Assembly: GCA_961205875.1 (NCBI GenBank)
Contig: OY540812.1
Location: forward strand, 15,624,001-15,688,000
Source of the DNA: Sialis fuliginosa
Lineage: Eukaryota > Arthropoda > Insecta > Megaloptera > Sialidae
Length of the DNA stretch: 64,000 nucleotides
Direction of reading: 5' to 3'
This document shows, one piece after another, positions 2,136-50,933 of the stretch. Positions within the stretch are counted from its first letter, which is position 1. Each line of letters begins with the position of its first letter. The notes below the pieces were generated by a model. It searched no databases. It had not been told where the DNA came from and was given only the letters and a program-made list of their open reading frames with translations. A program made the translations under genes and the position numbers.

Positions 2136-2923
2136 AGAAATAAGGTTATAGAATAAATTAAGAGATGTATCACTTCAATTAAAATAAATATTAATAAATT
2201 GTGACTTATAATTGCTGTAAAATTCATAATTTAAAAAAGACAATAAGTATTTATTCATCAAACCGATTTTTTTGATGCAAGTTCTTTACTTTAAATATTT
2301 TTAAATCATTCATAAGATTATGTGTTTTATAGTTTTAAAAAGCTATCTTCGCAAAATAATACGTTTTTTATCCACCCGAGATGTATGTTTGATAAATGTA
2401 GTGTGCTGAAAACTTTTAAAGAATAAATACTCGTTAAATCAGCAAAATACGAACATAATATCAAAAATTACATATATGTAAAATGTAAATACACTATAAA
2501 GATAGTTTGTAATTGGTTATAAGTCGGCAATTATTATTATCCACAGATGGTGGAAGATTCGAAGCTGCACAAAGTCAGACAGAGCAACCGACGAGCGAGT
2601 TTCTTCAATGACTTGAAAGCAGGCTGCAAATTAATAGAAAACGCTTGAGCACTTTTTAAGTGAAACCAATTTAAAGTTTTCTGCGCAACGAGTTTTCACC
2701 CGTCGGTGTAAACATTACCAAGTCTAATGTCTACATAAACGGCAGTTCCAAAAATGTTGGTTATTAATATATATTTTATATCCTTAAATAAAAACCAAAT
2801 TGTTCTGTTAAGATTGGGTTATTGATAGTTGGATTAATGAGCAATTTATGTATGTATTTTTTTATACAATTACTATATAATTTATCAAATTTAATGGGGA
2901 CATGTCACATGTAAGTTGATACG
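2136..2923. other. AT-rich DNA with a mixed-composition patch
   Basis: No gene recognised. About 2540-2710 is less A+T-rich than its surroundings but has no convincing frame, repeat partner or promoter signature. Confidence 0.4.
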
Positions 2924-3057
2924 TAAAGGCCTATATACACCACCCAATTTGACGTCCAATCTGCATTGTATAGGCAAGTCGGAGGGGTTATATATAATAT
3001 ATATATATAAAACACTACTCACTATAACAGTGGTGTATACTGTATAGAAGCCGTAAA
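2924..3057. mobile_element. short MITE, diverged copy (TAAAGGCC ends)
   Basis: It starts TAAAGGCCTATATACACCAC, and CCAATTTGACGTCCAATCTG follows. The right end (GTGGTGTATACTGTATAGAA) is degraded. A better preserved copy sits at 51515-51690 with the same left end and an inverted GGTGGTGTATAAAGGCCTTTA right end. Both copies carry AAAAACACTACT in the middle. No transposase is present, and the superfamily is not determined. Confidence 0.6.
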
Positions 3058-3151
3058 TCGGGAGCTAAAGGTAGGTTTCTGAAAATAATTTTGAACTGAA
3101 AATTCAAATCAGTATCTTTAAAAAGAACTGATTTTTTGCATTAATATATAT

Positions 3152-3901
3152 GTTACCGGCAATGTATGAAATACGGCATTCTATAGAATTCCTAGGTATT
3201 CTATAGAATGCCTAAAATCACCAGGCAATGTATGAAATGAATTTAATTATATACATTTCCTAGGCATTCTATAGAATACCTAATTGATAGCCGGCAATGT
3301 ATGAAATATAAACATAAATAGGGTGATCTCACTTAATACGTACCCGGGCAAATATTTGACTGAATTGATTATATAATATTTAAAGTTCCAATATTGTTTC
3401 TGTGAAATTGTTATTTTAACAGTAAGGGCCTTAAATCTAACTTAATAGACGTCTGGACTAATATGTTATTGAATTTTTAAATAATATCCAAGGTTTTTAT
3501 TTTTTATTTTAATAATTTTATATCATACTTGATATGCGTCTGAACTAATATTTTATTTTATTTATTATAATAAATATCAAATGTTATACTATTATTTATG
3601 TGGTTTTGTTATTTTAACAATGAAAGACCTAGATCTTACATAATATGAATTTGGACTTTTTAAAATTAATTAAATAATACCTATCTGTTTTATTAATATC
3701 ATTTTGTCTTTTATTTCATACATTTCCTAATATTATCTTGGCATTCTATAGAATTCCTAGGGATTCTATAGAATGCCTAGGGAAAGTATATAATAAATTT
3801 CTATTAAACAAATATTTCATACTTTGCCTGAAATCGTCAGGCATTCTATAGAATTCCTAGGAATTCTATAGAATGCCTGAATTACATACATTGCCGGTAA
3901 C
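3152..3901. mobile_element. palindrome-studded inverted-repeat element, copy 1
   Basis: The element starts GTTACCGGCAATGTATG and ends with its inverse CATACATTGCCGGTAAC. Inside, a motif A (CCGGCAATGTATGAAAT or close variants) alternates with CTATAG palindromes. The left side reads A 3156-3172, palindrome 3175-3212, A 3221-3238, half-palindrome 3259-3281, A 3291-3307. The right side carries A in inverse orientation at 3713-3727, 3814-3828 and 3881-3897, with palindromes at 3740-3777 and 3838-3879. The middle is AT-rich and non-coding. A second copy lies at 23626-24454. It is presumably a non-autonomous DNA transposon, but I could not match it to a known superfamily or fix a target duplication (TA is possible). 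Confidence 0.75.
3838..3879. repeat. 42-bp perfect palindrome inside the element
   Basis: Each 21-base half begins CAGGCATTCTATAGAATTCC, and the centre is CCTAGG. The two halves are exact reverse complements with no loop. Each half also contains the 12-base palindrome ATTCTATAGAAT. The equivalent site in copy 2 is 24391-24432. Confidence 0.9.
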
Positions 3902-4581
3902 ATATACACCGTATGATGAAAAAAGATTTTATAAAATAAAACTTAATGAAAATTGTATATTATAAATAATAATAGAAAACAATAAATTTCAAATTGAAAG
4001 TAACTTTTAGATTAATCTATCAATTCAAAGTAATCCAGAAAAAGAGTAGATAAACTGAAGTAAAAGAAAAAATTTAAAACACGATACTCACTAGAAGAAA
4101 AACACATGTAAAAGTTTATAAATTACGACTTTCTTAGGTAGTAAAACTGAATTTAACTTTATTTTGAATTAAAAACAGATTAGATGAAAAATTTGCAGTA
4201 TAGAAGATATAGTAGACGTTAATAGTGAAATATTTGTTCTGGATACTATTTTTCAAACCATCTTGGTTTTATCAGCTATAATATAAAACGAAATCGTAAT
4301 AAAAAGAAACAAAAGCAGATGCACATCTTATTTGGAAAAGCTGCACGATTTATATCTTAGTTACTCTTTTAATGTTTTAAAGAAAATAAAGAAAGTTGAT
4401 TGCAGCATAACAGACATTTCTTGTTACAATTTTTCATAAGTTAAAATAGTAATTTAAAATTCTAAAGAAACTTTTTTAAATAAAAATTATCTTACTTTTA
4501 CTAGTTACTCGTCTTAAAAGATAATTAGTTTTATTCCAACCTAAATTAAGAATATATTAAAATATTATACTTATGATATTA
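3902..4581. other. AT-rich DNA, no gene seen
   Basis: Strongly A+T-rich and without recognisable coding frames, repeats or RNA genes. Confidence 0.6.
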
Positions 4582-7746: not shown

Positions 7747-9366
7747 CACTACCGCTCAAAAGTTTCTGGGCAGTGATAATTTTTGATGAAAATAGTTATA
7801 AAACTGAAATTATTTTAAAACTATTGAACTTTTTTGATTATATAAAGTGTATTAAGGATATATTAATGAAATAAAACAGTTTTAGCAATATATTTTTTAT
7901 TTCAAAATCAATAAAGCTTATACATGTCTTTCATCGAAAAAACCACCTTTTACTTTTACAATTTTCTCAGTTATTCTCGGCATTCGTTCTATTAATTTTT
8001 GGATGGTTTCTGGTTTTATATTCTTCCAGGCTTCTTGTAAAATGTTCCAGAGATGATCCTTTGATGTAGGACAGTGTTTTCTTACCTCCCGATCCAATTC
8101 ATCCCAAAGGAGCTCTATAGGGTTAAGATCAGGTGATTGAGCCGGCCAATCCATATTTTTGAGCGTGCCGTCATCTTCCTTTTCAGCAAGGTAACTCCTA
8201 CAGAGCTTAGAAGCATGTTTTGGGTCGTTATCCTGCATGAATATAAACCCAGGACCAATTAACCGCAATCCTGAAGGAACAGCATTCTCTATAATATTTG
8301 TTTATAGTCCTCTTTCTTCATAATTCCATCTATTCGAATGAGATCTCCAACTCCCGCAGAAGAAAAACACCCCCAGACCATAACAGACCCCCCACCATGC
8401 TTCACAGTTGGCACTACACAAGCAGGAATCATGTTTTCTTTTTCCGTTCGTCTCACGTAAACGCGTCTTTTTTGCCCGAACACTTCAAACTTAGATTCGT
8501 CTGTCCATAGTACATTTCCCCAGTCCTCAACTGTGAAATTCTGGTGATCTTGTCCCCACTTCATCCTTTTAATTTTATTTTGATGTCGTAGTAATGGTTT
8601 TTTTACCGCAATTCGTCCTTTTAGGTTCCACTTGTAAAGCCGTCTTTTTACTGTTGATACAGAAACACCTTTAGTATGAGAATTGTTGAATGCAGCGCGT
8701 ATTTGAGGTGCTGTCAATCGTCGATTTCTCTTGCATATTACTTTAATAGTCATATCCTCAGCGGCTGTCGTACATTTAGGCCTTCCACTTCGTTTTTTGG
8801 TCGTGTTAAGGCCTGTCGACCTAAACCGAACGATTGTGTCATGCACTGTCGACTTCGGTATTTTTCAGTAATATCTCGTTCTGAATATCCTTCAGCATGC
8901 AAAGTTATCACCGAAGATCGTTTTTCAACACTCAAATCCTTTGATTTTTCCATCACAAACGATTATTATAAGATTTTAGCACAATTATGATGTCCTTTCA
9001 GAAGTACAACAACAACTGAAGGAATAAGGGTTGTGGTCAGCTTTTATACCCCCTAAGCTATCAAATCTACCTGGTAGTGATTAATTTTATTCTCAAATCC
9101 TAAGTAATCCGAAATTGTTGTGAATCAGAGAAGATTAACTGTTAAAATGTACAAACGTTAAATTCGACGAAAAATGATATTTGGTGTATTTTTACCTGAA
9201 TTTCAGTAATCTTCAAAGAGGTTGCAAAAATAAATACCAAACATTAAATTTTAATAGTTCTGTGTAAGTACTGAACCATTAAAGTGTACTTATATAGTCA
9301 AAATAATTCAAAAAATCAAATAAAATATGATGTCTGTAAGTGCCCGGAAACTTTTGAGCGGTAGTG
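7747..9366 (-). mobile_element. Tc1-like transposon, DD38E type (Intruder-like)
   Basis: It is 1620 bp with 26-bp terminal inverted repeats CACTACCGCTCAAAAGTTTC(T/C)GGGCA (one mismatch), flanked by TA (7745-7746 and 9367-9368), the Tc1/mariner target. A single transposase reading runs on the minus strand and is broken by two frameshifts. The residue spacing in its catalytic core is D-38-E. DD38E Tc1 relatives have been described as the Intruder family, and placement there is by spacing only. It lies inside the Helitron, so it arrived later. Confidence 0.92.
7918..8956 (-). pseudogene. Tc1-like transposase, two frameshifts
   Basis: The start is MMEKSKDLSVEKRSS at 8956. The N-terminal helix-turn-helix (LHAEGYSERDITEK) is followed by a frame change at the A-run 8861-8865. 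The next frame carries the second HTH, the AT-hook-like SGRPK and the first catalytic Asp in LWTDESKFEVFG. A second 1-base shift near 8288-8295 leads to the frame ending at 7918, with the second Asp in MQDNDPKH and the Glu in PDLNPIELLWDEL, 38 residues apart. Tc1 and mariner usually show 34. Both lesions look like single-base losses. The intact protein would be about 340 residues, the usual Tc1 size. It cut and joined DNA at TA sites; this copy cannot encode a full enzyme. Confidence 0.93.
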
Positions 9367-11203: not shown

Positions 11204-11216
11204 TCCTCCCCCCCTT
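11204..11216 (-). other. polypurine tract of the gypsy element
   Basis: On the minus strand, AAGGGGGGGAGGA runs directly into the TGTAACA start of the 3' LTR. This is the usual primer for plus-strand DNA synthesis. It overlaps the pol stop codon TAA (11215-11217), so there is no spacer and no room for an env gene. Confidence 0.9.
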
Positions 11217-14200
11217 AGACGGGAAGCTCTGGGTTCCTGGGATAATATTCACGCAATTGATCTATATGAGCACGTGATCGTTCAACACCTCCATCTAAAG
11301 GTTCTAGCAACACGTTTCCCGTGTTTACGAACTCGGCGATTCGCATGGGTGGCGACCATCTCCAGCGGAATTTAGAGCCTTCTGTGTTCCCAGGTGTAGG
11401 ATGTACCTTTTTCAATACCAACTGCCCCACCACAAATGGATTCTGGCGGCGACCCTTATTGTAGAGGCGCTCCATATGATGGCGGGCTTTAGTTATGGCA
11501 TCTCTTACTTCTTCCCGGGTAGGTCTAGTATCCTGGCTGGTGATTTGGTTGAGATTCCATTTGTTCAACAACGCGTGTGGCAGTTCGCGACCTAAAAACA
11601 GCATAGCGGGGGAGTGCTTGGTAGTTTCGCTCTGCGCTGAATTATGGGACAACGCGACGTAGGGTACCTTAATATCCCACTGCCTATAACTATTTCCTAG
11701 TTGATTCAGTAAAATAGTTAAGGTAGCCTTCATGTCCCTGTGCACTCTCTCAACTTGATTTCCCTGCGGTCTATATGACGAAGTCGTCACGTGTTTAATC
11801 CCCCATGCTACACACATCTGCTTGAATCTTTGGGATACAAAACACTTCGCGTTGTCAGTAACTATAACTTCAGGTGGACCATATCTGGACCACACGCTAG
11901 GAATCAATTTTCCGACAGTCGCCTCTGCAGTAGCCCTACGAAGTGGTATCAGTTCTACCCACTTAGTGTACGCATCCACCAAGGTGAGAACATAGCAATT
12001 ACCTCCGCTGGATCTTGTTAGCGGACCGACATGATCGATGTACACTCTCTGCCAAGGCCGCTGTGGAGACTCCGAGTGCATTAACCCAGCTGGGGCTTGA
12101 TTTAGAGGTTTAGCTCTTTGACACTCTACACAGGAGCGAACATAAGCACTAACCTCTTTGAAGAGACCTGGCCACCAAAAGGTCTGGGCGATTCGTCGGT
12201 AGGTTTTTGTTACTCCTTGGTGTCCAGACGTTTCCGCATCGTGAAAGTAAAAGAGTATCATGCGACGTAGATTTGGAGGAACAACTGCTCTCTTAAGTCG
12301 ATGTTTCCCAACAGTTCGCATCAGCAACCCCTGTCCGTTAACGTACCCTTTCACATCTTCGCCGGCGTTGAGTCGGTCTAAGATGAGGCGTGTCTCTGGA
12401 CAAGTGTGCTGATACTCCCTGAGGTTCACAAAGGACTCGGGGACCGTTTGCAAAACGTTGCATTCCTCCGTCTGTGTTGTCTCTTCAGGGTACGGGAGCC
12501 GACTGAGACAATCTGCCACTGGGTTGTTACATCCTCTGATATGTTCAACGGTAAACTGGTATCGTGATAACTTGAGGACCCACCTTCCGATTTTACCCAA
12601 CTGTTTTGGATGCTGAAACATCCAGGTAATCGCAGAGTTGTCAGTTTGTAGGGTGAAAGGCTGAGTCTCCAGATAAGCTGAAAACTTTTCTATGGCCCAC
12701 ACCGCCGCAAGAGCTTCCTTTTCATAAGTAGGGTAGTTTAATTCGGCCTTATTCAATTTGCGACTAGCGTATTGAATTGGTCGCAGCTCTTCATTCACCT
12801 TTTGCAATAATACAGCTCCGAGGGCAACGTCAGATGCATCCGTTTGTAGCACAAATGGTTTACCGAAGTCTGGATACGCCAGAACTGATGGACTTATCAA
12901 TAATACCTTCAGTTTTTCCACGGCCTCTATTTCTGTTGTACCCATTGTAAATCGTGCATGTTTCTTCTTCAGTGCATGAAGAGGAGCGGCGATTTTGGCG
13001 TACTCTGGGATGAAACGTGAAAAGTACCCTACCATGCCAAGGAAGCGTTCTACTTGTTTCAGCGTTCTAGGTATAGGATACTCGCGGATCACCTCTGCCT
13101 TCGTAGGATCTATATGAATTCCTTCGCTAGATAAGACGTGTCCTAGAAACTGAATCCTGCTCTTACACAGCTTGATCTTCTGCGGGTTTACGGTAAATCC
13201 TACCTTTCGAAGCCTTAAAAAGACTTCTCGCAAATGCTGCAGGTGTGAAGAGATGTTATCACTATAGACCAAGATATCATCAAAATAAGGATAGACGTAC
13301 TTATAGCGTAGATCCGAAAAGATTGAGAAGATGATCCTATTCAATGCCTGCGGTGAAACACATAGTCCGAATGGCGTGAACTTAAACTGGTAAGAGCCGT
13401 TTGGTACCAGAAAGGTAGTGTAACCTTTGGATTCTTCGCTTAAAGGTATCTGGTAGAATGCAGAATTTAGATCGATTACCGAAAATATCGATGCACCCTT
13501 GATTGTTTGAAAAACCGAATCGACACATGGCGTCGGGAACGAGTCATAGATTATCTTCTTGTTAAGTTCCCTATAATCTACACAGAGCCTTCTGCTACCA
13601 TCTTTTTTAGGAATTAAAAACGCGGGAGCACCGTATGGTGATTTGGATGGCTCGATCACCCCTTTTTCAAGAAGACCTTTTATGTGACTGCTCATCTCTT
13701 CGGCTTTTGGTGGGGTCAATGGATAGGGTGGCCTTCTCACTGGCACTTGGTCCTTCAGCAATATTTGGTATGTGTAGTCCGTCGTACATCCGATATTTAT
13801 CGACACGACATCTTTAAATTCATGCAGCAGCGAATTCCGTTCTTGTTGCTCTTTGACGTTTAAATGATGATCTTCCTCTGGATAAGAAAACAAACACGAG
13901 TGAGTCTTCATTAATTCTTCTGGTATCAGAGGTATCTGTACATTACGGTTGAACAAGAACGACAGCGTTTGGTTGTTCAAATTCAAGGATGCTTGAGCTG
14001 AGCATAGGAAATCCACTCCCAAAATCATTTCTGCAGCTAAACGCGACGCCACAAGGAAGGTTCTTGTCCAGTAGTACTTTCCAATATTCATCTTGAGGTT
14101 GACCTTTTCATGAATGTTGATTAAGGTCCCATCCGCTATTCGAGTAGAAATGTGACAGGTTTGCGTCTTGAACTTCCTAAGCTTGGCAAGTGTACCGGCA

Positions 14201-14361
14201 GCAATAAATGACGTGGTAGAACCAGTATCGACCAAGGCAGCAATCTTTGTTTTATTGATGTAAACGTAAATGAATGGAGGGCGATAACGGTGGACGTTTA
14301 TCTCCCTCGAATTATTTAGTTTTTTGAAGACGACGCTTGTACCGTCTTCGTGGCCAGACAC
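11215..14361 (-). CDS. pol: gypsy Pol: protease, reverse transcriptase, RNase H, integrase
   Basis: An uninterrupted frame of about 1048 residues that makes the enzymes for copying the element's RNA and integrating the DNA. Protease DTGS is at residues 45-48. RT has the D297 region (SVIDLNSAF) and YFDD at 359-362. RNase H has LQTDASDVALGA near 506 and LQTDNSAI near 571. Integrase has the zinc-binding set H707, H714, C744, C747, then catalytic D776, D836 and E871, and a C-terminal GPY/F-like stretch (FRWRWSPPMRIAEF). The frame opens with GTG, not ATG, and overlaps the end of gag by 46 bases in the -1 frame, so it is most likely made as a Gag-Pol fusion by ribosomal frameshift. No chromodomain is visible. 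All catalytic residues are present. Confidence 0.96.
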   Translation of the reverse strand: MSGHEDGTSVVFKKLNNSREINVHRYRPPFIYVYINKTKIAALVDTGSTTSFIAAGTLAKLRKFKTQTCHISTRIADGTLINIHEKVNLKMNIGKYYWTRTFLVASRLAAEMILGVDFLCSAQASLNLNNQTLSFLFNRNVQIPLIPEELMKTHSCLFSYPEEDHHLNVKEQQERNSLLHEFKDVVSINIGCTTDYTYQILLKDQVPVRRPPYPLTPPKAEEMSSHIKGLLEKGVIEPSKSPYGAPAFLIPKKDGSRRLCVDYRELNKKIIYDSFPTPCVDSVFQTIKGASIFSVIDLNSAFYQIPLSEESKGYTTFLVPNGSYQFKFTPFGLCVSPQALNRIIFSIFSDLRYKYVYPYFDDILVYSDNISSHLQHLREVFLRLRKVGFTVNPQKIKLCKSRIQFLGHVLSSEGIHIDPTKAEVIREYPIPRTLKQVERFLGMVGYFSRFIPEYAKIAAPLHALKKKHARFTMGTTEIEAVEKLKVLLISPSVLAYPDFGKPFVLQTDASDVALGAVLLQKVNEELRPIQYASRKLNKAELNYPTYEKEALAAVWAIEKFSAYLETQPFTLQTDNSAITWMFQHPKQLGKIGRWVLKLSRYQFTVEHIRGCNNPVADCLSRLPYPEETTQTEECNVLQTVPESFVNLREYQHTCPETRLILDRLNAGEDVKGYVNGQGLLMRTVGKHRLKRAVVPPNLRRMILFYFHDAETSGHQGVTKTYRRIAQTFWWPGLFKEVSAYVRSCVECQRAKPLNQAPAGLMHSESPQRPWQRVYIDHVGPLTRSSGGNCYVLTLVDAYTKWVELIPLRRATAEATVGKLIPSVWSRYGPPEVIVTDNAKCFVSQRFKQMCVAWGIKHVTTSSYRPQGNQVERVHRDMKATLTILLNQLGNSYRQWDIKVPYVALSHNSAQSETTKHSPAMLFLGRELPHALLNKWNLNQITSQDTRPTREEVRDAITKARHHMERLYNKGRRQNPFVVGQLVLKKVHPTPGNTEGSKFRWRWSPPMRIAEFVNTGNVLLEPLDGGVERSRAHIDQLREYYPRNPELPV
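14316..14325 (-). promoter_or_regulatory. -1 ribosomal frameshift site at gag/pol junction
   Basis: On the minus strand the gag frame ends TCA AAA AAC TAA. A AAA AAC (plus 14319-14325) is a canonical X XXY YYZ slippery heptamer in the right phase, and the gag stop follows at once. A one-base backward slip enters the open pol frame. The frame arithmetic (gag codons at phase 2, pol at phase 0, minus strand) confirms a -1 shift. I did not fold the downstream RNA to test for a stimulating structure. Confidence 0.88.
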
Positions 14362-15278
14362 TTTCTATCTGCATTGGTAGATTGTCGCAGATTAGATGAA
14401 GCTGAGTTATCGGTACGTGCGGCTGCTGTTTCCTGCTCGGCGGCATACATTATTTTTCGTCGCTTTGCGGCTTGCACTTGTTGACCTAGTGCATGCAGTT
14501 CATTGAAGTTGCCGGGTGGTTGATGAAATCGCATTAAGCTAAAGGTTTCATCGTTAACGTGGTTAAAAATAATGCTGCATATACTAATTTCAGATGTATT
14601 TAATTGAAGTGCCTTTTCTTTTTGAATAACGTCATACGTGAACTCTCTGAAATCTTCGTTTTGACGTTGCCATCGATAAATGAATTCCGATTTCAAAGCT
14701 TCGATATCTAACTCTGTCATTAACTCACGAAGCATGGCAGTTTTGAGTTGCGGCCACGTACGATATCGACGGGCGTTACCACCCCACCACTTTGCTAGGT
14801 AATCTTCACATTTGCTCGACAAACGAAAAACCAAATTTCCAGGAGTGATACATTGAAGGTCGTCTACAGCATCAACGGCTTCAATGAAAAGAAGTGTTTG
14901 CATTGGATCCAATCCGTTGATTATTGGAACCCGGTCGAACATGGATGTGCAATTTTGTTCTTCACTGTTGATTCGCTCGATTCGCTGACTGGTTAATGAA
15001 GACACAAGCCGATTAATCGATTGTGTAAGCTCGACTTGATACGCTGCAAGGCCAGTCAGCGCGTAGGCGGTGTCTTCTGGTGATATACTTCGCCCTTCGG
15101 TCTGCGTAGCGGTTCGATCTGGCGGCGAATTCGCTTCTCTACCAGCGTCTTCATTATTATTGTCAACTTGCTGATGAATAGGAGGTGTGCTATTCTCTGT
15201 CAAATATCTCGAAGACGGTGGCCCTCTAGCTCGGCGATCTTCAGCCGTTAGTCTTGGAGGAGAATTGGGAATAGACAT
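14316..15278 (-). CDS. gag: gypsy Gag protein
   Basis: 320 residues starting at ATG 15278, the first ATG after the primer binding site. It would form the virus-like particle that packages the element RNA. The N-terminal 65 residues are polar and disordered (SPPRL, NNNEDAGREANSPPD). Residues about 150-250 (FRLSSKCEDYLAKWWGGNA, TWPQLKTAMLRELM, FREFTYDVIQKEKAL) look like the alpha-helical retrotransposon Gag core. A basic AAKRRK patch is at 270-275. There is no CCHC zinc knuckle, which many gypsy Gags have, so RNA binding may rely on the basic tail. It ends in the slippery site and TAA at 14316-14318, overlapping pol. Confidence 0.92.
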   Translation of the reverse strand: MSIPNSPPRLTAEDRRARGPPSSRYLTENSTPPIHQQVDNNNEDAGREANSPPDRTATQTEGRSISPEDTAYALTGLAAYQVELTQSINRLVSSLTSQRIERINSEEQNCTSMFDRVPIINGLDPMQTLLFIEAVDAVDDLQCITPGNLVFRLSSKCEDYLAKWWGGNARRYRTWPQLKTAMLRELMTELDIEALKSEFIYRWQRQNEDFREFTYDVIQKEKALQLNTSEISICSIIFNHVNDETFSLMRFHQPPGNFNELHALGQQVQAAKRRKIMYAAEQETAAARTDNSASSNLRQSTNADRKCLATKTVQASSSKN

Positions 15279-15407
15279 GGTAAAATAATGGAAGTAGGAA
15301 TGATAAACAATTATGATACAGGATCGTCGTGACTGTATAATTTAGAATAACGCGATAATTAATATGACTATAATAAACCGAATTACTAAGTTAGCATTGC
15401 ATAATAG

Positions 15408-23604: not shown

Positions 23605-23625
23605 ATAATATATATTAATATATAT

Positions 23626-24454
23626 GTTACCGGCAATGTATGAAATACGGCATTCTATAGAATTCCTAGGTATTCTATAGAATGCCTAAAATCACCAGGC
23701 AATGTATGAAATGAATTTAATTATATACATTTCCTAGGCATTCTATAGAATACCTAATTGATAGCCGGCAATGTATGAAATATAAACATAAATATAGGGT
23801 GAATCGATCAATTTTGGTCCAGGTACAGATGTTGCCTTACTTTATGTTATAAAATACTGATGCAAATATACAATAAAAAAATCTTGGTTCATTCTCGATA
23901 GCTGTAGGTAGGTTTCTAGATTATAATTCAGTATTGTCGGTACAATACTGAATTATTTATCAAAATAAACATTTTATATTTACGCGTTATAGGTATAATA
24001 GAAAAATGTATGTACTATGTAGGTATATTGTTTCTATGAATTTGTTATTTTTACAATAAGGGCCTTAAATCTTACTTAATACACGTCTGGACTAATATGA
24101 TTATTTTATTTTATTTATTATAATAAATATCAAATGTTATACTATTGTTTATGTGGTTTTGTTATTTTAACAATGAAAGACCTAAATCTTACAGAATATG
24201 AATTTGGACTTTTTAAAATTAATTAAATAATACCTATCTGCTTTGTTAATATCATTTTGTCTTTTATTTCATACATTTCCTAATATTATCTTGGCATTCT
24301 ATAGAATTCCTAGGGATTCTATATAATGCCTAGGCAAAGTATATAATAAATTTCTATTAAACAAATATTTCATACTTTGCCTGAAATCGTCAGGCATTGT
24401 ATAGAATTCCTAGGAATTCTATACAATGCCTGAATTACATACATTGCCGGTAAC
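23626..24454. mobile_element. palindrome-studded inverted-repeat element, copy 2
   Basis: Same GTTACCGGCAATGTATG ends, same order of motif A and CTATAG palindromes, and the same orientation as copy 1 at 3152. The first 190 and last 330 bases are nearly identical to copy 1, while the middle is about 80 bp longer and differs in part. The palindrome near 24292-24330 has lost symmetry at one position, but the 42-bp palindrome at 24391-24432 is perfect although its sequence differs from copy 1. No coding content. Confidence 0.75.
24391..24432. repeat. 42-bp perfect palindrome, covarying with copy 1
   Basis: The half-site begins CAGGCATTGTATAGAATTCC. Against copy 1 (3838-3879) position 9 is G instead of C and the mirror position 34 is C instead of G, so perfect self-complementarity is kept. 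Confidence 0.9.
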
Positions 24455-24659
24455 ATATACATAACATTAATATATTACAGTTTCGGTCAGTATGGTCAGA
24501 TGGTTATTCCATATAATATATTTGTAAAATATATATCATATGTAAATGGCCCCAATAAAAAATGCCCCCCTCCCAAAAAAAATATCCTGGTTACACCAGT
24601 GCAGCGGGGGATCAAGTCCCCTTGCCCCTCACTGATTACACTGATGCACGCGCGCCTCA

Positions 24660-27865: not shown

Positions 27866-28237
27866 TCATGCAACTGTGTGTATTTTCACTTTAGTCTTCT
27901 TTTTCTTCAATTTTACTTTAATTATTTTTGAATCCTTTAAAACACGTTGCACGTTTCGTACGTTAGTTATAACACCTGCTTTCCTGGCAATTTCTCTTGC
28001 TGTGGCTGAACTTTTTGAAGCAACTTTTAAAATTGTTTTCTTATCACGATCACTGATAGCTTTTGGTCGTCCTTGGCCTTTAGGTTTACCATAATTATCT
28101 GGGTCTTTTAAAAAATTACGAATACAATGTTCGCTTCTCTTTAATTCTTTTGCAATTTCAGTATTGTTTTTACCATTTCGATGTAGAACTGACACTTTCT
28201 TACGTTCTTCAAGACTCAGTTGCTTAGCTCTTCCCAT
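27866..28237 (-). pseudogene. Tc3-like transposase DNA-binding domain only
   Basis: Reading from MGRAKQL (28237), 123 residues. The first helix-turn-helix (LSLEERKKVSVLHRNGKNN, TEIAKELKRSEHCIRNFL) is followed by DPDNYG, an AT-hook-like GQGRPK (54-59) and a second helix-turn-helix (DRDKKTILKVASKSSATA, REIARKAGVI, VRNVQRVLKDS), then a Lys-rich tail. This is the paired-type DNA-binding region of Tc1/Tc3-family transposases. The DDE catalytic domain is missing: a stop follows KIHTVA and no catalytic motif appears downstream. The frame is also open 21 residues upstream. TATATAAGG lies about 95 bases upstream of the ATG. It is most simply a 3'-truncated transposon. An exapted DNA-binding protein is possible because the frame is clean, but nothing else supports that. 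Confidence 0.8.
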
Positions 28238-28574
28238 TTTAACAACACAATAATAATCACTTGTAGACGTTACAAAGAACTTTTCTCTATCCAATGTCAC
28301 ATCTAAATATATAATATCGAACGCTTACATCGTACCTTATATACTCGTCTAAGTTTTTGGTGCAGGTAAAATTTTTCGGTAAATCTGAGATTAAAACCAA
28401 GTTAAGCAATAAAACGGTATGACTTATATGAATGTAAATAACGATTAATGGTATCTTAAGATAACATCAAAGGAATTAGTTATAGATGTAGTTGTGTTTT
28501 ATTTTAGAAGGGAAATTATGAAAATTGTTAGAAATCTAGCGGATAAAAATGATTTTGCAGTGTTTTATATACTG

Positions 28575-50884: not shown

Positions 50885-50933
50885 ATTTGTCTAATAAGCA
50901 TGCTTGTCTAATAAGCATGCTTATTAGACAAAT
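50885..50933. repeat. perfect 21-bp hairpin, 7-base spacer
   Basis: Left arm ATTTGTCTAATAAGCATGCT+T and its exact inverse, separated by GTCTAAT. The spacer repeats bases 5-11 of the left arm, so GTCTAATAAGCATGCTT also occurs as a direct repeat. Confidence 0.9.

What the first reader, a model, noticed from the sequence alone, without database searches (positions are those of the whole stretch)
3152..3901. Unassigned element with mirror-ordered motif/palindrome arrays at both ends
At the left end a 15-17-base motif (CCGGCAATGTATGAAAT) occurs three times with CTATAG palindromes between. At the right end the same motif occurs three times in inverse orientation with two more palindromes. A second copy at 23626-24454 keeps the whole arrangement although its middle differs. 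So the ends are under a shared constraint and the centre is free, as for a non-autonomous element whose mobilising protein reads an array of sites. I know no superfamily with this signature and saw no transposase or Rep frame.
Basis: partly seen in the sequence, partly recalled or inferred. Interest (0 to 1): 0.75.

Follow-up and report, generated by a model that had tools for sequence, protein, structure and literature searches.

The report
Non-coding Ginger2-type jumping DNA element
This is a non-coding jumping DNA element present in hundreds of copies in an insect-like genome; a rare longer relative with the same ends carries a gene for a retrovirus-like integrase, which places it in a known transposon group called Ginger2.

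Summary
The arrays are real and far above chance. The element is 3151-3902 (752 bp); its sister copy is 23625-24455 (831 bp). Both have tips TGTTACCGG...CCGGTAACA, imperfect terminal inverted repeats (132/145 bp, 78-80%) and TATA on both sides. Their flanks are unrelated, so this is no segmental duplication. In the window's own genome the tips occur 244 (left) and 290 (right) times, controls 0. A 4-bp target duplication matches at 36 of 40 sites (cross-paired flanks 60%), six of them not TATA; one diverged copy outside the 40 mismatches too. Targets fit RTATAY. The 'free' centre is two different internal deletions of one longer parent. A 4,675-bp relative (G000:C4:35557667-35562341, -) has the same ends (170/175 and 195/200 bases), duplication CATA, and a 450-aa frame with Integrase_H2C2 and rve similarity and a conserved D,D,E triad; its gene is frame-shifted. 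The published Ginger2 marks that I tested are met (Bao et al. 2010, PMC2836005); no tree could be made. Verdict: a non-autonomous Ginger2 family, a new member of a known kind. The less usual part is the subterminal array of a 15-bp motif and CTATAG palindromes; that the transposase reads it is inferred. Repbase, Dfam and iMITEdb could not be checked.

The parts
3147..3150 (.). target duplication TATA, left of copy 1
3151..3902 (+). copy 1: complete non-autonomous element, 752 bp, tips TGTTACCGG / CCGGTAACA
3903..3906 (.). target duplication TATA, right of copy 1
3151..3282 (+). left terminal inverted repeat (80% to 3758-3902)
3758..3902 (-). right terminal inverted repeat
3158..3172 (+). 15-bp motif, exact
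3224..3238 (+). 15-bp motif, exact
3246..3260 (-). inverse motif, 3 mismatches
3293..3307 (+). 15-bp motif, exact
3175..3212 (.). left double palindrome (36 of 38 bases self-complementary)
3261..3282 (.). left single CTATAG palindrome (20 of 22)
3713..3727 (-). 15-bp motif, 1 mismatch
3740..3777 (.). right inner double palindrome (36 of 38)
3814..3828 (-). 15-bp motif, 1 mismatch
3837..3880 (.). right outer double palindrome, perfect over 44 bp
3881..3895 (-). 15-bp motif, 1 mismatch, next to the right tip
23621..23624 (.). target duplication TATA, left of copy 2
23625..24455 (+). copy 2: 831 bp, same ends, other internal deletion
24390..24433 (.). perfect 44-bp palindrome of copy 2 (variant CATTG/CAATG)
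24456..24459 (.). target duplication TATA, right of copy 2

Best explanation
It is a non-autonomous, MITE-like DNA transposon of the Ginger2 (Ginger2/Tdd) group. Shown: a family of at least a few hundred copies with tips TGTTACCGG/CCGGTAACA, imperfect terminal inverted repeats (132/145 bp aligned), 4-bp target duplications at RTATAY-like sites, internal-deletion forms of about 0.7-1.1 kb, longer non-coding forms (3.7 and 4.8 kb read), and one 4.7-kb copy with the same ends and a frame-shifted gene for an integrase-type (H2C2 + rve-like, D-D-E) transposase. Inferred: that protein, or a close relative of it, bound the subterminal sites, cut the DNA at the TGT..ACA tips and joined it to target DNA with a 4-bp stagger at RTATAY. 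Short copies arose by internal deletion and were mobilised in trans. The repeated motif and palindromes are probably transposase (or host cofactor) binding sites.
For: High copy: 244 left tips and 290 right tips (up to 3 mismatches), controls 0 and 0. 4-bp duplication: 36 of 40 sites in the recount of the fetched copies with both tips readable, against 940 of 1,560 (60%) for cross-paired flanks; other lengths fit fewer (2 bp 32, 6 bp 5, and 1, 3, 5, 7, 8 bp 0-1); purine at -5 in 39 of 40, pyrimidine at +5 in 39 of 40, strict RTATAY in 30 of 40. Six matching duplications are not TATA: TACA, CATA twice, TATG twice, GATA. Coding copy 4,675 bp: tips and CATA duplication; outer 175 and 200 bp match copy 1 at 170/175 and 195/200. 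Its 450-aa frame: Integrase_H2C2 E 8e-7 and Znf_SCAND3 E 1.7e-13 over their cut-offs, rve E 1.6e-6 below its cut-off; foamy-virus integrase structures at E 3e-17 over residues 85-338; D168, D227, E264 kept in 90% or more of 24 aligned proteins, 23 of them homologues I chose from the 120 listed of 1,230; named homologues include KRAB-A domain-containing protein 2-like of several insects. Published Ginger2 marks: 4-bp duplication, TGTNR tips, RTATAY, 50-180 bp TIRs, H2C2 + DDE without GPY/F and YPYY; a pea-aphid family of 2,885 bp with 166-bp TIRs (PMC2836005).
Against: Four of the 40 sites have mismatched duplications (L033, L075, L077, L084), and so has the diverged copy L043, seen and not among the 40. 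Of the 10 sites with a non-TATA side, 6 match and 4 do not. The only coding copy read is split into two overlapping frames (450 and 152 aa; the second matches the C-terminus of a 647-aa homologue), so it need not be active. The other strong protein match (C2:17544460) is broken, and 900 bp taken around where its left end was expected matched nothing of the coding copy. No Ginger2 reference sequence was at hand, so no tree was made. No empty site was shown. rve alone is under its Pfam cut-off. The protein search scored 150 of 369 candidates.
Confidence: 0.92

Rival explanations
1. A non-autonomous element of a superfamily not yet described; the coding copy is a chance or secondary capture of an integrase gene.
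For: The motif/palindrome array is not mentioned in the Ginger2 passages and section read. Integrase-like frames are common in this genome (444 first-look candidates for rve). Only one coding copy with these ends was found.
Against: The coding copy has the same tips, its own intact CATA duplication, and non-coding 5' and 3' parts that align with the 3.7-kb form (1-709 at 89%, 2312-3699 at 77%), so the gene sits inside the element. Tips, duplication length and target preference independently fit Ginger2.
Confidence: 0.04
2. PIF/Harbinger, ISL2EU or another PHIS element, or Tc1/mariner.
For: AT-rich targets; before copies were collected TA and ATAT duplications were both possible.
Against: PHIS duplications are TWA, AT, ANT, CWG, C|TNA|G or none (PMC4482050, passages). 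Here 4 bp fits 36 of 40 sites, with TACA, CATA, TATG and GATA among them. The 450-aa frame of the coding copy has no PHIS or Tc1 domain in Pfam.
Confidence: 0.02
3. A segmental duplication or satellite-like repeat that happens to have symmetrical ends.
For: L046 and L050 share flanks over at least 90 bp each side, with L057 sharing the left flank, i.e. one insertion duplicated with its surroundings. Tandem left ends occur in L031 and L037.
Against: Flanks of the two window copies are unrelated, and 40 sites with different flanks were read.
Confidence: 0.01
4. Within the Ginger2 reading: the arrays serve something other than transposase binding (replication of an excised circle, a host factor, or passive by-product of array expansion).
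For: The palindromes are not strictly kept: at the variable pair of the right outer palindrome the mismatched state C,C is the commonest (26 of 44 ends). In nine old left ends the bins over the palindromes differ no less from the consensus than others (26-base bins, coarse).
Against: The same order of motifs and palindromes is kept in the coding copy and in copy 1, with 97% identity at the ends.
Confidence: 0.3

Closest known systems
Ginger2-1_AP (Acyrthosiphon pisum; Bao et al. 2010, Table 2, PMC2836005)
   Same: Ginger2 element of an aphid; TIR 166 bp (here 132/145 aligned); as a Ginger2 member, 4-bp duplications, TGTNR tips, RTATAY target.
Ginger2-1N1_NV (Nematostella, same table; taken as non-autonomous from its name and 252-bp length)
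   Same: Short Ginger2 derivative in more than 50 copies.
   Different: 252 bp with 52-bp TIRs; whether it has a motif/palindrome array is unknown to me.
TDD-4/TDD-5 of Dictyostelium (same paper)
   Same: DNA transposons with an integrase-type transposase and long TIRs (260/297 bp).
   Different: 5-bp target duplications.
KRAB-A domain-containing protein 2-like genes of insects and other animals
   Same: Nearest named homologues of the transposase frame (for example 67% identity, Onthophagus taurus).
   Different: Annotated as genes; whether these records are transposons or domesticated genes was not tested.

Membership tests
Ginger2/Tdd | 4-bp target duplication (5 bp in TDD-4/5) | tested here: met
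   36 of 40 sites, cross-paired control 60%; 23 of 24 rows in the earlier count; L043 is a further mismatch
Ginger2/Tdd | tips of pattern TGTNR | tested here: met
   TGTTA at both ends of the copies listed and of the coding copy; the diverged L043 reads TGCTA and L047 has lost its left tip
Ginger2/Tdd | preferred target RTATAY | tested here: met
   R 39 of 40, Y 39 of 40, strict RTATAY 30 of 40
Ginger2/Tdd | TIRs of about 50-180 bp | tested here: met
   132/145 bp aligned, 78-80% identity in copy 1, copy 2 and the coding copy
Ginger2/Tdd | transposase with H2C2 zinc finger and DDE integrase core | tested here: met
   coding copy only: H2C2 over cut-off, rve below it; integrase structures; D,D,E in 90% or more of 24
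Ginger2/Tdd | no GPY/F and no YPYY motif | tested here: met
   by eye on the 450-aa frame printed; not tested by profile
Ginger2/Tdd | transposase groups with Ginger2 in a tree | not tested
   no Ginger2 reference proteins held; that KRAB-A-2-like proteins are Ginger2-type is recalled
Ginger1 | CCGG/CCGT target duplications, GPY/F and YPYY motifs | tested here: not met
   duplications are TATA-like; motifs absent by eye
IS3EU/GingerRoot | TA..TA tips and usually 6-bp duplications | tested here: not met
   tips TGT..ACA; 6 bp fits 5 of 40; family marks from PMC10045372 (passages)
IS481EU | TGT tips with 4-, about 15- or about 25-bp duplications; known from parabasalids | tested here: inconclusive
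   tips and 4 bp would fit; about 15 and 25 bp were not tested for; H2C2 over cut-off speaks against, since the paper says IS481EU lacks the HHCC motif (PMC10045372, passages)
PHIS (PIF/Harbinger, ISL2EU, Spy, Pangu, Nuwa) | duplications TWA, AT, none, ANT, CWG, C|TNA|G | tested here: not met
   family marks from PMC4482050 (passages)
Sola | 4-bp duplications with a Sola transposase | not tested
   Sola marks recalled only; coding copy carries an integrase-type protein instead
Polinton/Maverick | 6-bp duplications, PolB and capsid genes | tested here: not met
   4-bp duplications; in the coding copy the two longest frames, 452 and 152 aa, both belong to the transposase

The most novel reading that the evidence does not exclude
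This Ginger2 lineage has evolved a compound end: a 15-bp site and a related CTATAG palindrome (the two share 11 of 15 bases, counted by eye) multiplied into mirror-ordered arrays of about 190 bp. An integrase-type transposase with an extra zinc finger reads these cooperatively, unlike retroviral integrase, which works from short terminal sites (recalled). That would make it a distinct terminal architecture within integrase-type transposons.
Probability: 0.2. Interest if true: 0.45.

Novelty: new member of a known kind. Interest (0 to 1): 0.3.

Why it matters
It assigns an unplaced, high-copy, recently spread repeat family to the group of transposons whose transposase resembles retroviral and Gypsy integrases. 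Its array-like ends, shared by a coding copy and hundreds of tip copies, offer a natural test of what DNA such a transposase needs besides the tips.

Tried and rejected
(1) Pattern scans of viral contigs and of prokaryote genomes: 2, 5, 15 and 0 stretches. In the 22 fetched stretches the best similarity to the element printed is 18-30 bases long, which I take as chance. (2) ISL2EU/PHIS was my first guess from the GTTAC tip; rejected once copies showed 4-bp duplications. (3) The 6,977-bp copy L071 looked like the autonomous partner because of a 1,551-aa frame; rejected, since that frame lies in a separate nested transposon with its own 395-bp inverted repeats. (4) Short rve frames: of nine noted, two were read (L091, L092); they have Polinton-like neighbours by eye and no tips. 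(5) Compensatory change in the palindromes: not supported, the mismatched state is commonest. (6) Ends more conserved than interior: in 38 young left ends 0.4-1.4% divergence per bin over the first 182 positions against 1.0-3.2% beyond; most of these copies were chosen through an exact tip or motif match, so I use it only as a hint. (7) Empty site: the same joined-flank query was sent nine times and never answered. (8) My first duplication counts (23 of 24, 22 of 23) left out copies fetched later and the diverged L043 and L047; the recount replaces them.

Full report
Observation. The two structures exist as described. With up to three mismatches the 15-bp motif has 19 matches in the window, against 4.4 expected and 10 at most in 100 shuffles. 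The two longest perfect palindromes of the window, 44 bp each, are the outer right palindromes of the two copies. From the tip inwards each end reads: motif, double palindrome, motif, weak inverse motif, palindrome (single at left, double at right), motif. The two ends form imperfect terminal inverted repeats of 132/145 bp at 78-80%. The flanks of the two copies are unrelated over 1 kb on each side.

Family. The window lies in a held genome of 392,097,322 bases in 20 contigs. I suspect an aphid from its low G+C and general look, but no call names it. The 17-bp motif has 720 + 716 matches (up to two mismatches) against 13 + 21 for the reversed control. The left tip has 124 + 120 and the right tip 141 + 149 matches (up to three mismatches), controls 0; the tools listed only the first places of each. 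Of 48 left ends aligned, 34 lie within 2.2% of the consensus, so part of the spread is recent.

Borders and target. In 40 sites with both tips readable (42 rows, two of them, L050 and L057, dropped as the same site as L046), the tip TGTTACCGG with a 4-bp duplication fits 36; cross-paired flanks match in 940 of 1,560 pairs (60%, since TATA dominates). Other lengths fit fewer: 2 bp 32, 6 bp 5, and 1, 3, 5, 7 and 8 bp one or none. The mismatches are L033, L075, L077 and L084; the diverged copy L043, seen with tip TGCTACC and TATA/CATA, lies outside the 40 and is a fifth. Ten sites have a side other than TATA; six match (TACA, CATA twice, TATG twice, GATA) and four do not. Purine stands at -5 in 39 of 40, pyrimidine at +5 in 39 of 40, and the site is strictly RTATAY in 30 of 40. 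In the earlier test of borders, moving the border one base outwards leaves a 2-bp match in 23 of 24 rows, which is simply the middle of the same 4 bp.

Forms. Longer non-coding forms exist. L069 (3,699 bp) and L070 (4,804 bp) were read and have no frame over 91 aa; five further pairs of 3.4-3.7 kb are inferred from tip coordinates only and may include nested inserts. The interior holds repeats of about 110 bp. Copy 1 aligns with positions 1-176 plus 3118-3699 of L069's element; copy 2 with 1-377 plus 3291-3699. The variable centre is therefore the usual internal deletion.

Coding relative. A recalled consensus of KRAB-A-2-like integrases gave two strong places in the genome (73% and 66% identity); the other listed matches were at 35% identity or less. 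The first lies within a 4,675-bp element, G000:C4:35557667-35562341 (minus strand), with tips TGTTACCGG/CCGGTAACA and duplication CATA/CATA. Its outer 175 and 200 bases match copy 1 at 170/175 and 195/200. Its non-coding parts match the 3.7-kb form at 89% (left 709) and 77% (right). The 450-aa frame has Integrase_H2C2 and Znf_SCAND3 over their cut-offs and rve below its cut-off. It matches foamy-virus integrase structures at E 3e-17, and D168, D227 and E264 are kept in at least 90% of 24 aligned proteins (23 homologues chosen by me from the 120 listed of 1,230), 36 residues lying between the second D and the E. A second frame of 152 aa matches the C-terminus of a 647-aa homologue at 70%, so the gene of this copy is interrupted by a change of frame. 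The second place (C2:17544460) has a stop, and 900 bp taken around where its left end was expected show no similarity to the element.

Known kind. Bao et al. 2010 (PMC2836005; passages, section 6) describe Ginger2 by 4-bp duplications, TGTNR tips, RTATAY targets, TIRs of 50-180 bp, and H2C2 + DDE without GPY/F and YPYY, and list a pea-aphid family with a 166-bp TIR. The features that I tested are met; a tree was not made. IS3EU/GingerRoot (PMC10045372, passages) and PHIS (PMC4482050, passages) do not fit; IS481EU fits in tips and one of its duplication lengths but is reported from parabasalids and without the HHCC motif. PMC9179366 (Harbinger-like elements of fish, passages) was not used.

Mechanism. 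Shown: non-autonomous copies, 4-bp duplications, target preference, internal-deletion origin, and a coding relative with the same ends. Inferred: cut-and-paste mobilisation in trans by the Ginger2-type transposase, and reading of the array. Against a strict role of the palindromes: the mismatched state of one variable base pair is the commonest (26 of 44), and nine old left ends show no extra conservation in the bins over them (coarse). The order of sites is nevertheless the same in the coding copy and in copy 1.

Literature. Searches with MITE, aphid and subterminal-repeat terms, Ginger2 with aphid terms, with KRBA2, with non-autonomous/MITE/palindrome terms, Tdd-4 and insect/copy-number terms, and the letters of the motifs (0 papers), returned no paper whose listing describes this family; for these only listings were seen, apart from the papers named above. 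iMITEdb (PMC5199201, seen as a listing) reports 6,012 MITE families from 98 insect genomes and may hold this one; it, Repbase and Dfam were not available.

Noticed in passing
L071:897-6813 (G000:C5:27297501-27304700): A copy of the family is interrupted by another transposon of about 5.9 kb with 395-bp terminal repeats (96%), tips TAGCCCAGTC, apparent duplication GTA and a 1,551-aa open frame; 1,550 aa of it gave no Pfam match at E 0.1. By eye it holds a nuclease-like stretch and a CXC-like cysteine cluster.
   Followed up: partly
L091, L092 (C10:4430801-4434000; C1:24511101-24514300): Integrase frames of 309 and 372 aa with Polinton-like neighbouring frames by eye; the 372-aa frame length recurs at C9, C13 and C14.
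   Followed up: partly
window 7918-8864 and 27866-28324: Tc1/mariner-like transposase frames, the first split into two (by eye).
   Followed up: no
window 11215-15341: Gypsy-like retrotransposon with long open frames (1,049 and 341 aa, by eye); the same 1,049-aa frame length recurs at other places of the rve list.
   Followed up: no
L069:1540-1780: Inside the 3.7-kb form lies a small inverted-repeat insert beginning with TACTCCCTCTGTCCCATAATA, resembling Stowaway-type elements (by eye; resemblance recalled).
   Followed up: no
L080:66-114: Only the first 46-49 bp of the left end remain, with TATA next to both borders: a one-ended or deleted insertion.
   Followed up: no
L031:3474-3853 and L037:2187-2457: Left ends repeated in tandem (210 and 103 bp apart), possibly from end-to-end recombination or nested insertion.
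   Followed up: no
window 50904-50931: Perfect 28-bp palindrome TTGTCTAATAAGCATGCTTATTAGACAA outside the family.
   Followed up: no
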